Assembly (NCBI GenBank): GCA_018058095.1
Contig: JAGPCO010000071.1
Location: forward strand, 1-40,425
Length of the DNA stretch: 40,425 nucleotides
Direction of reading: 5' to 3'
From: Kofleriaceae bacterium
GTDB lineage: Bacteria; Myxococcota_A; Polyangia; Haliangiales; Haliangiaceae
A program made the translations under genes and the position numbers. Of the stretch, positions 36,116 through 40,425 are shown piece after piece. The first letter of the stretch is position 1. The number at the start of each line of letters is the position of its first letter. The notes below the pieces were generated by a model, which saw nothing but the letters and a program-made list of their open reading frames with translations, made no database searches and had not been told where the DNA came from.

Positions 36116-37543
36116 TCAGGGCGGGGTCGGGGCCGGGGCCGGCCCGTCCGCCCCGATCCGGGTCGCGACCACCCGCTGGTCGCCGACGACGAACACCATC
36201 TCACCGCGGGCGAACACCACCACCGCGCCGACCTCCTCGATGAAGTACTCGTCGTCGCTGATCGGCGCCAGCCGGACCGGGCGCTCACCCGGGCTGGCGG
36301 CGACGAGCTTCTTGCCGTCGACGCGGACCTCGACGACCGAGCCGGGCAACGCGTAGCGGCCGGCATGACGGGCCAGCACGTCGGGCCCCGGCAGCTGCAG
36401 CGGCTCCGGTGCGTGCCCGCCGAGCAACTCGAACAGCGGGCCGACCAGGCGATCGACCTGCGCGGTCGAGGTCGCGGCCAGCAGCACCACGCCGTGGCGG
36501 CGCTCGAGGTCGACGCCGAGGTAGGCGTGGAAGCCGCCGGTGCTGCCGTTGTGCCAGCGCCGGCCGGCGCCGTCGATCTGCCAGCCCATGGCCATGGCCA
36601 CCGCCTCCGGTGCGGCGCTGGCCTCGTCGGCGCCCGGCAGGGGCTCGAGGCTGCGCCGCAGCGCGGCGGCGAGCGGGGCCGGCTTGCCCCGACGCCCACC
36701 GCCGGCGGCGTGGGCGTCGAGCAGCAGGCGCGTCAGGCGCAGCAGGTCGTTGGTGGTCGAGCGCAGCCCGCCGAGCCCGGCCATGGCCGGGGTGAAGGTC
36801 CAGAACGGCGCGACCCGCCCGAGCGCGTCGTGGCCGGCGGCGTGCCGGCCCGCCCGCCCGGCCGGGACCTGCTGGAACGTGTCGACCAGCCCGAGCGGCG
36901 CCAGCACCCGCGTCGTGAGGGTCGCCGCGTACGGCGCTCCGGCCCGGCTGGCGAGGAGGTAGCCGAGCAGGCCGTAGCCCCAGTTCGAGTAGTGCACCTG
37001 GCGCCCGGGCGCCGCGCGCAGGCGGGCCCGCGCCAGATCACGCAGCAGCGCGTCCTCGCCGTAGCCGGCGTACGGATCGGCGGTGTGGACCCGGGCCTCG
37101 ATGGCCGGCGGCAGGCTGGGCAGGCCCGAGCGGTGCGCCGCCAGATCGAGCAGGGTGATCGGCCGCTCGCCCGACCCCGGCGCGGTGATGCCCATCGGCA
37201 GCAACGAGACGATGGCGGCGTCGGCCGCGACCTCGCCACGCTCGATCGCGTCGGCCAGGAGGATCCCGGTGAACACCTTGCTGACCGAGCCGAGCTCGAA
37301 CACGGTCGCGCCGTCGGGGCTGGCGCCGGCGCCGACCTTGCCGAAGCCGAACACGAAGGTGCGCTCGCCGTCGACCAGGCCGACCACCAGCGCGTCGACC
37401 AGTTGCGACGCCAGCAGCGGCGCGACCTGGGCCGCCACCTCGGCCCGGTACGGGTCGGTGTTGACCGGCGCCAGCGGGGGCAGCGCGGGTGCGCCCCCTC
37501 CACACGAGGCGGCCAGGGCGAGGACGACGAGGCAGCGGCGCAT
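36116..37543 (-). CDS. Serine hydrolase, class C beta-lactamase/DD-peptidase fold, lipoprotein
   Basis: 475 residues. The signal peptide MRRCLVVLALAASC has lipobox AASC. The penicillin-binding fold has the motifs SVSK (S86, K89), YSN (HYSNWGYGLLGYLL) and HNGSTGGFH in place of KTG. A C-terminal ~110-residue beta domain (GPDVLARHAGRYALPGS onwards) matches the lipocalin-like tail often seen in these enzymes. It probably acts on peptides or esters in the periplasm or on the cell surface. ATG 37543 is the first start giving a lipoprotein signal. Confidence 0.9.
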   Translation of the reverse strand: MRRCLVVLALAASCGGGAPALPPLAPVNTDPYRAEVAAQVAPLLASQLVDALVVGLVDGERTFVFGFGKVGAGASPDGATVFELGSVSKVFTGILLADAIERGEVAADAAIVSLLPMGITAPGSGERPITLLDLAAHRSGLPSLPPAIEARVHTADPYAGYGEDALLRDLARARLRAAPGRQVHYSNWGYGLLGYLLASRAGAPYAATLTTRVLAPLGLVDTFQQVPAGRAGRHAAGHDALGRVAPFWTFTPAMAGLGGLRSTTNDLLRLTRLLLDAHAAGGGRRGKPAPLAAALRRSLEPLPGADEASAAPEAVAMAMGWQIDGAGRRWHNGSTGGFHAYLGVDLERRHGVVLLAATSTAQVDRLVGPLFELLGGHAPEPLQLPGPDVLARHAGRYALPGSVVEVRVDGKKLVAASPGERPVRLAPISDDEYFIEEVGAVVVFARGEMVFVVGDQRVVATRIGADGPAPAPTPP

Positions 37544-37676
37544 GCGCCCCTTATCGCACGCCGGCCCGGCCGCCGGGCGCCCCGCCGCCCGCGGGCGGCA
37601 CCCGCCGGCGCGACCTGTCAGCGCCGCACAGCGGCGCGGGCGCCGACGCGCCCCGGGTTGTGCCACCCTGGGGTCC

Positions 37677-38897
37677 ATGTCGGCCCTGCCCTCCTCCTCC
37701 ACGCTGATGCTCGCTGCCGTCGCCGGCCTGACCGCCTTCGCGCCCGTCGCCCGCGCCGCGCCGGGCGACCAGGGCGTGATGGGCGGCGGCCCGGTTGCCG
37801 AGGGCAGCTGGCGCGACGTCGCCGCCGTCAACTTCTCCGGCACCGCCGAGTGCTCCGGCGTCCTCATCGCCCCCACCGTCGCGCTCACCGCCGGCCACTG
37901 CGACGCTGGCAACCTCGACAGCATCCTGGTCGGCACCAACTCGCTGGCCCGGCCCGAGCTGGGGGAGCTCATCCCGGTCGCCCGCCACGTCGAGTACCCC
38001 GACTCGTTCAACAACTTCGACCTGACCGTGCTGGTGCTGGCGCGCCCGGCCACCGTGCCGCCGCGGGCCATCGCCACCGGCTGGGCCAGCCTGGAGATCA
38101 TCGCCGGCGCGGCGGTGCAGATCGTCGGCTACGGCGCGCTCGATCGCGACGCCTCGCAGTACGTCGACGAGCTGCACGAGGCCGAGACCACCATCACCAG
38201 TGGCGACTGCGCCGAGGACGGCCTGGGCTGCAACCTGCCGGCGCGACCGGCCGGCGAGCTCGGCGCGGGTGGCATGGGCATCGACACCTGCCCTGGTGAC
38301 TCCGGCGGCCCGCTGTACCTCAAGACCTCCTACGGCGACTTCGTGGCCGGCATCACCTCGCGCGGCTACGAGGACGCGGTCTACCCGTGCCAGGACGGCG
38401 GCATCTACACCCGGCCCGACGCGGTGATCGACTGGATCGAGCAGACCGCCGGCGTGCCGGTCAGCCACGCGCCCGAACCGACCGCCGACGCCCTCGCGCT
38501 GGTGCCCGGCGGCGGCGGCCAGACCGTCGTCGTCGCCAACGATCCGAGGGCGACCGCGCACACCTTCGCGCTGGCCGGTCCACCCGAACACGGCCAGGCC
38601 GCGGTCGCCGCCGACGGCCGGGTCCGCTACTGCGCCGCGGCCGGCTACACCGGCGACGACTGGATCCCGGTCACGGTGACGGACGCCAGCAACCCGGCGC
38701 GCACGCTGACCACCCGCGTCTACGTCCAGGTCCAGGACGGGCCGACCGAGACCGGGTGCAGCCTGGAGTTCGACGACGATGGCGCCGGTGGCTGCTGCGC
38801 GGCCGGGCCCGGGCACGCCGGCGGGCGGGCCCTGGTGGCGGGGCTGGTCGGGCTGCTGCTCCTGCGCCGTCGCCGCGCCGCGCCGCGCGCGCGGTGA
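37677..38897 (+). CDS. Secreted trypsin-like serine protease with MYXO-CTERM tail
   Basis: 406 residues. A signal peptide (LMLAAVAGLTAFAPVARAA) precedes a chymotrypsin-fold protease with triad H74 (TAGHC), D115 (NNFDLTVLVL) and S209 (CPGDSGGPLY). The segment ~260-370 is a beta domain (DDWIPVTVTDASNPARTL) and the end holds CC, a hydrophobic helix (ALVAGLVGLLLL) and RRRR, a MYXO-CTERM-type tail for surface sorting. It is divergent from the serine-hydrolase gene. CACCCT 7 nt upstream of ATG may be a weak -10. Confidence 0.93.
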   Translation: MSALPSSSTLMLAAVAGLTAFAPVARAAPGDQGVMGGGPVAEGSWRDVAAVNFSGTAECSGVLIAPTVALTAGHCDAGNLDSILVGTNSLARPELGELIPVARHVEYPDSFNNFDLTVLVLARPATVPPRAIATGWASLEIIAGAAVQIVGYGALDRDASQYVDELHEAETTITSGDCAEDGLGCNLPARPAGELGAGGMGIDTCPGDSGGPLYLKTSYGDFVAGITSRGYEDAVYPCQDGGIYTRPDAVIDWIEQTAGVPVSHAPEPTADALALVPGGGGQTVVVANDPRATAHTFALAGPPEHGQAAVAADGRVRYCAAAGYTGDDWIPVTVTDASNPARTLTTRVYVQVQDGPTETGCSLEFDDDGAGGCCAAGPGHAGGRALVAGLVGLLLLRRRRAAPRAR

Positions 38898-38935
38898 TCC
38901 CGGCGGCGCCGGCCGCGCGGTCGCGCCGGCGGTGT

Positions 38936-38941
38936 TACCCT
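38936..38941 (+). promoter_or_regulatory. -10 box of the histone-fold gene
   Basis: TACCCT (in GTGTTACCCT) ends 7 nt before ATG 38949; the GTGTTAC block is shared with trpB and nth. Confidence 0.45.
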
Positions 38942-38948
38942 GGCGGCG

Positions 38949-39542
38949 ATGAGCGATGACGTGTGGATGCGGTGCAGCGCGTGTCGTCGGGACCTGCGCT
39001 TCGGCGCGACCTACCAGGAGTGCAGCGTGTCGACCTGCAACCGGTCGCGCACGCGGCTGGTGTTCTGCTCGGTCAGCTGCTGGGACAGCCACGTCGCCGA
39101 GCTGCGCCACCGCGAGGCGTGGGCGGTCGAGGCGCGGGCGCCCAGCCGGACCAGCTGGGAGGCCGAGCGCGCGGCCGATGCCGCGGCGGCGCCGGCCGCG
39201 ATCGCCGCCACCCCGAGCGCGGCCGCCGCGGCGGCGACGCGCCCGGTCGCGGTGCCCGAGATCCGACGCCAGGTGGTGACGGCCGGGCCGGCCTCGTCGG
39301 CGCCGGCCGCCGTCGCGCCGGGTGACCCGGCCCTGGTCGACGGCGTCGAGCGCGACATGCTCATCGTCATGTCCAAGCTCAAGAAGTACATCCGCGACCG
39401 CTCCGGCATGAACTGCTCCGACGCGGTGGCCGACGTGTTGTCCGACCACGTGCGCGCGCTGTGCGACGACTCCATCCGCGCCGCCGGCCGCGACGGCCGC
39501 AAGACCGTCCTCGATCGCGACGTGCCGCGCCCCCGACGCTAG
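38949..39542 (+). CDS. Cys/His cluster protein with C-terminal histone fold
   Basis: 197 residues. The N-terminus carries a probable zinc site: C9-x2-C12, C25-x4-C30 and C40-x3-C44-x3-H48. A ~75-residue Ala/Pro-rich linker follows. Residues ~133-192 read like an HMfA/HMfB-type histone fold: a short first helix (MSKLKKYIRDRSG), a long second helix (CSDAVADVLSDHVRALCDDSIRAA), then GRDGRKTVLDRDV with the R184-K185-T186 motif that in archaeal histones sits at the DNA-binding loop. It is probably a cytosolic nucleoid-associated or regulatory protein. Bacterial histone-fold proteins are known, but the Cys/His-cluster-linker-histone layout is unusual. The TAG stop runs directly into the palindrome GGAGTC/GACTCC. 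Confidence 0.8.
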   Translation: MSDDVWMRCSACRRDLRFGATYQECSVSTCNRSRTRLVFCSVSCWDSHVAELRHREAWAVEARAPSRTSWEAERAADAAAAPAAIAATPSAAAAAATRPVAVPEIRRQVVTAGPASSAPAAVAPGDPALVDGVERDMLIVMSKLKKYIRDRSGMNCSDAVADVLSDHVRALCDDSIRAAGRDGRKTVLDRDVPRPRR

Positions 39543-40013
39543 GAGTCCGACTCCGTACCGACTTCGGATCGCCCCGGGGTCGGCCTTCGGCCTCGCGCTG
39601 TGGACAGGCGCCCGGCGAAGCCGGGCGTGAGGGCACTCGAGCCACGGCGACGGCGCCTGCCCACAGCGGTCTCCCCGGGGCTGTCGTGGCTCCCCCAACC
39701 GGATTCCTTCGAATCCGTCCCTGACCCTGACCCCACCCGGCGAAGCCGGGTGTCAGGGGTCTTGGGTGGAAACACCCCCTCAGGGTCCGCATGTCCAGGC
39801 CCGGGCGGACTGCTGTGGGCAGGCGCTCCCTCTCTCCACGCCCATCTCCACCCGCGCCACGCCCTGCGCCTGTCCACAGCAGAAGGCTTTAGCCGACGCC
39901 CGGGCCGGTCCAAACGCGGAGTCGCCGCGCCGAGCGTGAATGCGTCCTGAAACGTCGCCGCACGCCCGACGAAAACCCTTGGCTCGGCCGCCGCGACAAT
40001 ATATAAGCCCTAA
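39543..40013. repeat. Non-coding stretch with REPIN-like inverted repeats
   Basis: 471 nt without a credible coding frame. A 17-nt motif CGCTGTGGRCAGGCGCC occurs at 39596-39612 and inverted at 39652-39668. A variant CTGCTGTGGRCAGGCGC occurs at 39810-39826 and inverted at 39866-39882. In each pair the arms differ only by one A/G. CCCGGC-GAA-GCCGGG occurs twice (39611-39625, 39736-39750), and CGGATTC-CTTC-GAATCCG is a perfect hairpin (39700-39717). This resembles REP/REPIN palindromes around a RAYT gene, which follows. Confidence 0.75.
40000..40005 (+). promoter_or_regulatory. -10 box of the transposase gene
   Basis: TATATA in the AT-rich stretch ACAATATATAAG ends 8 nt before ATG 40014. TTGGCT at 39979 is only 15 nt upstream. 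Confidence 0.4.
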
Positions 40014-40425
40014 ATGTTCTCACGCGCCGCTCGCGCCCGCAGCGACCGAGGCCGCCACGCCGTGCCGGCCGGGGCCCAGGTCAGCTTCGACGACCTCGTG
40101 CGCGGCATCACCACGCCGCCACGGCGGCCGCGGCGGCGCCGGCGCGGCCGTCCGCCCATGCAGAACCGCAACTCGGTCAAGCGCTGCCGGAGACCTCGCT
40201 TCGCGAGGACCACCGTCCACCACGTCAGCCTGCGCACCGTCGACACCCTGCCCAGGCTGCGCACCCACGCCGGCCGCGAGGTGCTCGAGCGCGCCCTCAC
40301 CGGCGCGCGTGACCACACCCGCGTCACCGGCTTCCGCGTCCTGCACTACGCCCTCGAGGGCAACCACCTCCACCTCATCGTCGAGGCCGACGATGACATC
40401 GCGCTGTCGCGCGGCATGAAGGGGC
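40014..40425 (+). CDS. REP-associated tyrosine transposase (IS200-like, RAYT), N-terminal part
   Basis: The frame runs open from ATG 40014 to the window end (137 residues seen; the C-terminus is missing). A basic, Arg-rich tail of ~60 residues leads into RPRFARTTVHHVSLRTV, then FRVLHYALEGNHLHLIVEADDD with the metal-binding HUH pair H118-x-H120 and ALSRGMKG, the Transposase_17 pattern of Y1/RAYT proteins. The catalytic Tyr would lie past the window end. RAYTs are thought to mobilise REP palindromes; REPIN-like pairs stand directly upstream. ATG follows a -10-like TATATA by 8 nt. Confidence 0.85.
   Translation, partial: MFSRAARARSDRGRHAVPAGAQVSFDDLVRGITTPPRRPRRRRRGRPPMQNRNSVKRCRRPRFARTTVHHVSLRTVDTLPRLRTHAGREVLERALTGARDHTRVTGFRVLHYALEGNHLHLIVEADDDIALSRGMKG

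What the first reader, a model, noticed from the sequence alone, without database searches (positions are those of the whole stretch)
38949..39542. Histone fold joined to a Cys/His cluster in a bacterial protein
The C-terminal ~60 residues carry a complete HMf-like pattern: two helices and GRKTVLDRD with the R-K-T motif. The N-terminus has a CxxC/CxxxxC/CxxxCxxxH cluster that should bind zinc, and an Ala/Pro linker separates them. Bacterial histones are a recent field; an arrangement with a zinc head could tether DNA to a partner or recognise a second ligand. The gene has its own promoter and is not in an obvious mobile region.
Basis: partly seen in the sequence, partly recalled or inferred. 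Interest (0 to 1): 0.85.

Follow-up and report, generated by a model that had tools for sequence, protein, structure and literature searches.

The report
Myxobacterial ZZ histone (known family)
This gene encodes a small bacterial histone with a zinc-binding head, a combination already described in 2024 as a 'ZZ histone'; here it proves to be a conserved, separately transcribed and probably scarce gene of myxobacteria, with a newly noticed stand-alone relative of the zinc head elsewhere in the same genome.

Summary
ORF 38949-39542 (+, 197 aa) has an eight-ligand Cys/His head, a disordered Ala/Pro linker and a C-terminal histone fold. Residues 129-197 are modelled with high confidence (pLDDT 90.6), and the best solved match is Bdellovibrio HBb (Foldseek E 5.7e-5, TM 0.88; sequence E 2e-9, profile E 4e-21), closer than HMfB. 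The novelty claim fails: Schwab et al. 2024 defined exactly this architecture as 'ZZ histones', with a Haliangium protein as their illustration. The gene is not confined to Kofleriaceae: relatives occur across Myxococcota and in Bdellovibrionota and others. All eight zinc ligands keep one spacing in 75 of 75 homologues, and most of HBb's DNA-contact residues are kept. Three additions. (1) Orthologues carry a TAnnnT -10 box 5-9 nt before the start codon (23/27; 0.4% in slid controls) and so look leaderless, while the tailed FtF histone in the same genomes has Shine-Dalgarno sites. This suggests low expression. (2) The head is basic, unlike the acidic H3-tail pockets of eukaryotic ZZ domains. 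(3) A stand-alone head microprotein with identical ligand spacing is conserved near coaX/rimO. Most likely function (inferred): an HBb-like dimer binds and bends DNA while the zinc heads recruit a partner.

The parts
38949..39542 (+). ZZ histone CDS, 197 aa
   Evidence: ORF; orthologues with head and histone in 30 of 35 genomes of the order (counted)
38964..39143 (+). N-terminal zinc head, residues 6-65; ligands C9, C12, C25, C30, C40, C44, H48, H54
   Evidence: Invariant ligands and spacing; head modelled at pLDDT 86-97 and closest to ZZ domains, weakly
39144..39344 (+). Ala/Pro-rich flexible linker, residues 66-132
   Evidence: Low pLDDT; linker length varies 39-116 residues in the family
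39261..39275 (+). Short conserved basic motif R105-R106-Q-V-V inside the linker
   Evidence: R106 invariant, V109 nearly invariant in 26 orthologues; an RRxV-like motif in 53 of 75 homologues
39345..39530 (+). Histone-fold domain, residues 133-194 (alpha1 141-152, alpha2 160-181, alpha3 189-191)
   Evidence: AlphaFold2 model and Foldseek/VIA matches to HBb; phmmer E 2.2e-9
39498..39521 (+). Loop L2 RKTVLDRD motif (R184, K185, T186, R190, D191)
   Evidence: R184, T186, R190, D191 are 100% conserved in 75 homologues; equivalents of K185, T186 and R190 contact DNA in HBb
38933..38941 (+). Extended -10 box TGtTACCCT, 7 nt before the ATG (predicted leaderless promoter)
   Evidence: TAnnnT at this place in 23 of 27 orthologues versus 2 of 459 slid controls
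37713..38897 (+). Upstream neighbour: trypsin-like protease; syntenic in Kofleriaceae only, not considered part of the system
   Evidence: PF00089 E 7e-25; synteny

Best explanation
The protein is a ZZ histone. Two copies pair through the C-terminal histone fold and bind DNA without sequence specificity, bending it as the Bdellovibrio histone HBb does. From each dimer two small zinc-stabilised heads hang on flexible linkers and contact a partner (protein or nucleic acid), so that the protein works as a scarce adaptor on the chromosome rather than as bulk packaging. Shown here: the fold, the conserved zinc ligands, the conserved DNA-contact residues, the conserved -10 box, and a second, tailed FtF histone in the same genome. 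Inferred: dimerisation, zinc binding, DNA bending, low abundance and the partner.
For: Histone model pLDDT 90.6, and HBb is the top match by sequence, profile and fold. Eight of ten HBb DNA-contact positions listed by Hu et al. carry the same residue or a family-conserved substitute: S142, K143, K145, C156 (T in 78%, C in 18%), S157, K185, T186, R190; the exceptions are M141 and D158. Zinc ligands invariant. Published family with identical architecture. Leaderless-type promoter against Shine-Dalgarno sites in 16 of 21 FtF genes; low ZZ-histone expression is reported in Bdellovibrio. No conserved neighbour beyond the family, which argues against a dedicated operon partner.
Against: No dimer could be modelled and no zinc, DNA-binding or expression data exist for this protein. 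The head matches to ZZ domains are weak (VIA Z at most 4.7) and Pfam recognises no ZZ domain. The partner is unknown. The promoter-based inference about abundance is indirect.
Confidence: 0.72

Rival explanations
1. The head reads the basic N-terminal tail of the FtF histone in the same cell, as eukaryotic ZZ domains read H3 tails, and so brings the ZZ histone to FtF-covered DNA.
For: An FtF histone with tail MAKATKTAKKAPAKA is in the same genome, strong FtF matches occur in 27 of 35 genomes of the order, and the tails start MAKAK in most.
Against: The head carries net charge +4 here (family mean +3.6), with a basic residue at position 13 in 99% and conserved R32 and R55; Schwab et al. report that the pocket residues are not conserved and judge tail binding unlikely. 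ZZ and FtF histones do not strictly co-occur.
Confidence: 0.12
2. The basic zinc head is a second nucleic-acid-binding module, so that the dimer bridges two DNA segments or DNA and RNA.
For: Basic, highly conserved head and flexible linker; the stand-alone relatives of the head are even more basic (mean +7).
Against: Nearest folds are protein-binding ZZ domains; no nucleic-acid-binding signature was identified.
Confidence: 0.3
3. The histone fold no longer organises DNA; it serves only as a dimerisation platform, as in TAF proteins, for a zinc-finger regulator.
For: Histone folds are known to be reused in this way (general knowledge; raised in PMC11390915).
Against: The DNA-contact residues are kept across 75 homologues.
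Confidence: 0.1

Closest known systems
ZZ histones (Schwab et al. 2024, PMC11390915; example D0LYE7 of Haliangium ochraceum)
   Same: N-terminal two-site zinc finger (C4 and C2H2), flexible linker, C-terminal bacterial-dimer-like histone; same bacterial lineage.
   Different: No clear difference. The paper numbers the C4 ligands C51/C53, while every sequence read here has C-x3-C; D0LYE7 itself was not available to check.
Bacterial dimer histone HBb (Bd0055), PDB 8CMP, 9EZZ, 9F0E
   Same: Histone domain: fold, short alpha3, RKT loop, most DNA-contact residues.
   Different: HBb has no zinc head or linker and is abundant and essential; HBb T8 and A25 are M141 and D158 here.
Bacterial FtF histone HLp, PDB 9QT0
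   Same: Same alpha3 histone superfamily (profile E 9e-11).
   Different: Forms tetramers and wraps DNA; a separate FtF gene exists in this genome.
Eukaryotic ZZ domains (p62, HERC2, ZZZ3, p300)
   Same: Two-zinc cross-brace-like ligand order; best, though weak, structural neighbours of the head.
   Different: Different ligand spacing, basic rather than acidic surface, and no Pfam ZZ match.

Membership tests
ZZ histone | C-terminal alpha3 (bacterial-dimer-like) histone fold | tested here: met
   Model and fold search, HBb best; profile E 3.8e-21 to HBb
ZZ histone | N-terminal zinc finger with a C4 and a C2H2 ligand set | tested here: met
   C9, C12, C40, C44 and C25, C30, H48, H54 conserved; actual zinc binding not testable
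ZZ histone | Head structurally similar to eukaryotic ZZ domains | tested here: inconclusive
   ZZ domains (Nbr1 complex, p62, HERC2, ZZZ3, p300) dominate the VIA list but Z is only 3.1-4.7; no Pfam ZZ hit
ZZ histone | RxTxxxxD motif and alpha1 lysines for DNA binding | tested here: met
   R184, T186, D191 invariant; K143 (K/R) and K145 conserved
Bacterial dimer histone (functional dimer that bends DNA) | Forms only dimers and bends DNA | not testable with these tools
   Needs a multimer model or biophysics
FtF histone | Closest relative is an FtF histone and forms a tetramer | tested here: inconclusive
   HLp and HTkC rank below HBb in all searches; tetramerisation not testable
HMf-type nucleosomal histone | Best match to HMf and a full-length alpha3 | tested here: not met
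   HMfB profile E 3.7e-4 against 3.8e-21 for HBb; alpha3 is one turn

The most novel reading that the evidence does not exclude
The zinc head of the ZZ histone and the stand-alone head microprotein encoded elsewhere in the same genomes bind the same partner, so that the microprotein competes with, or regulates, recruitment of the histone to that partner: a two-component zinc-head system on bacterial chromatin that has not been described.
Probability: 0.12. Interest if true: 0.6.

Novelty: new member of a known kind. Interest (0 to 1): 0.33.

Why it matters
ZZ histones are one of five subfamilies of alpha3 histones and none has been characterised in the laboratory, to judge from the two held papers that name them. 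This case gives a clean comparison within one genome: a tailed FtF histone with a normal ribosome-binding site, a ZZ histone with a leaderless-type promoter, and a free copy of the zinc head. That makes the question of what the head binds testable with small proteins.

Tried and rejected
Full-length model was poor in the histone half (pLDDT 62-75), so its Foldseek search gave no histone match; the domain was remodelled with 75 homologues. Generic sigma-70 and terminator scans found nothing. Pfam with the single sequence gave only zf-FCS at E 0.76 and NCBIfam only archaeal histone at E 0.005, which would have undersold the match. An operon with the upstream protease was considered: the genes are adjacent in 10 of 15 relatives fetched, with 4-nt overlaps in three, but the synteny is absent in other families and the -10 box lies inside or next to the protease end, so inherited gene order is the simpler reading. 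Lateral transfer: the tree is too weakly resolved and the submitters' taxon labels too uncertain to decide. MYND, HIT or TRASH identity of the head: weak matches only.

Full report
What is there. The ORF at 38949-39542 (+) encodes 197 residues. It has three parts: a Cys/His head (about residues 6-65), an Ala/Pro-rich linker (66-132) and a C-terminal domain ending in GRKTVLDRDVPRPRR.

Histone domain. With the single sequence, phmmer against solved structures finds Bdellovibrio HBb at E 2.2e-9 and Leptospira HLp at 4.9e-6. A profile of 75 homologues gives HBb 3.8e-21, HLp 9e-11, HTkC 2.1e-9 and HMfB 3.7e-4. A model of residues 129-197 has mean pLDDT 90.6, with helices 141-152 and 160-181 and a one-turn alpha3. 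Foldseek's top five hits are all HBb (best E 5.7e-5, TM 0.81-0.88 on the target), followed by HLp, HTkC and nucleosomal histones; VIA-align gives Z 8.4 for HBb. Residues that contact DNA in HBb crystals (Hu et al. 2024, PMC11317129) map to M141, S142, K143, K145, C156, S157, D158, K185, T186 and R190. Eight of the ten are the same residue or a family-conserved substitute (the residue numbers printed there for the histone part are one too low).

Zinc head. In 75 homologues the spacing is always 2/12/4/9/3/3/5, although the pattern used to collect them allowed variable spacing. Six of the 80 loci were left out, five because no RKT-like motif followed and one because the pattern did not match. 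The head is modelled at pLDDT 86-97. Its nearest solved folds are mostly ZZ domains, but with weak scores (Z up to 4.7), and Pfam names none. The head is basic: net +4 here and +3.6 on average, with K or R at position 13 in 99% of sequences. In eukaryotic ZZ domains acidic residues bind peptide N-termini (general knowledge), and Schwab et al. note that this pocket is not conserved in the bacterial family.

Known family. Schwab et al. [quoted passage not shown] The paper reports very low expression in Bdellovibrio and no known function. The only other held paper naming the family merely lists it. The finding is thus a member of a published family.

Distribution. Orthologues spanning head and histone occur in 30 of 35 genomes of the order, counted. 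A GTDB scan returned 80 loci, mainly Myxococcota, with Bdellovibrionota and one record labelled Planctomycetota. In a draw of 239 Myxococcota genomes, 53 have a single match spanning both domains (counted by eye). The architecture is therefore not confined to Kofleriaceae. In a comparison of four of the more distant loci with 60 others, no neighbouring gene was shared by four or more loci. In Kofleriaceae a trypsin-like protease usually lies just upstream.

Promoter. The generic scan found nothing. Aligning 27 orthologues on the start codon shows TAnnnT, 5-9 nt before it, in 23, against 2 of 459 positions in slid controls. Related sequences are not independent, but the surrounding bases differ. 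Here it is an extended -10, TGtTACCCT (38933-38941), 7 nt before the ATG. Such a layout implies transcription starting at or next to the start codon, hence a leaderless mRNA (inference). By contrast none of 21 FtF histone genes of the same order has this and 16 have a Shine-Dalgarno-like site. The simplest reading is that the FtF protein is the abundant histone and the ZZ histone is scarce.

Second histone and free heads. The same genome carries an FtF-type histone of 77 aa with a basic tail (G000:C184:40421-40651). It also carries a head-only microprotein (G000:C114:19713-19892) with the same eight ligands and identical spacing in all 28 examples read, mean charge +7. This sits in a conserved neighbourhood with type III pantothenate kinase, a TlpA-like thioredoxin, an HD-GYP-like response regulator and a rimO-like methylthiotransferase, partly kept in other families of the class.

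Mechanism. The best-supported account is an HBb-like DNA-bending dimer that presents two zinc heads on flexible linkers to a partner. Fold, ligands, DNA-contact residues and promoter element are shown computationally; dimerisation, zinc and DNA binding, abundance and partner are inferred. The most open point is the partner: basic-tail reading is disfavoured, while nucleic acid or an acidic protein surface fits the charge better.

Verdict. A correct observation of a published but uncharacterised family. Interest is moderate to low; the free zinc head and the contrast in expression signals are the useful additions.

Noticed in passing
G000:C114:19713-19892 (L131:8959-9192): Stand-alone zinc-head microprotein (about 60-77 aa), same eight ligands and spacing as the ZZ histone head, no histone; conserved across families of the class, beside coaX, a TlpA-like protein and rimO.
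   Followed up: partly
G000:C184:40421-40651 (L144:9419-9652, - strand): Second histone of the genome, FtF-like, with a basic tail MAKATKTAKKAPAKA; strong matches in 27 of 35 genomes of the order.
   Followed up: partly
window 39611-39633 and 39736-39758; 40158-40424: Two near-identical REP-like palindromic repeats (CCCGGCGAAGCCGGG) and a truncated Y1-transposase-like ORF (PF01797, E 0.009, below cut-off) at the contig end; possibly a REP-associated transposase.
   Followed up: partly
window 39261-39275: A short basic motif (RRxVV) is conserved inside the otherwise variable disordered linker of the ZZ histone; role unknown.
   Followed up: no
window 37713-38897: Trypsin-like protease with a C-terminal Cys-containing, hydrophobic, arginine-rich tail resembling MYXO-CTERM sorting signals (tail read by eye; PF00089).
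   Followed up: no
window 36119-38101 (- strand): Beta-lactamase/penicillin-binding-type serine hydrolase domain (PF00144, E 6e-50).
   Followed up: no
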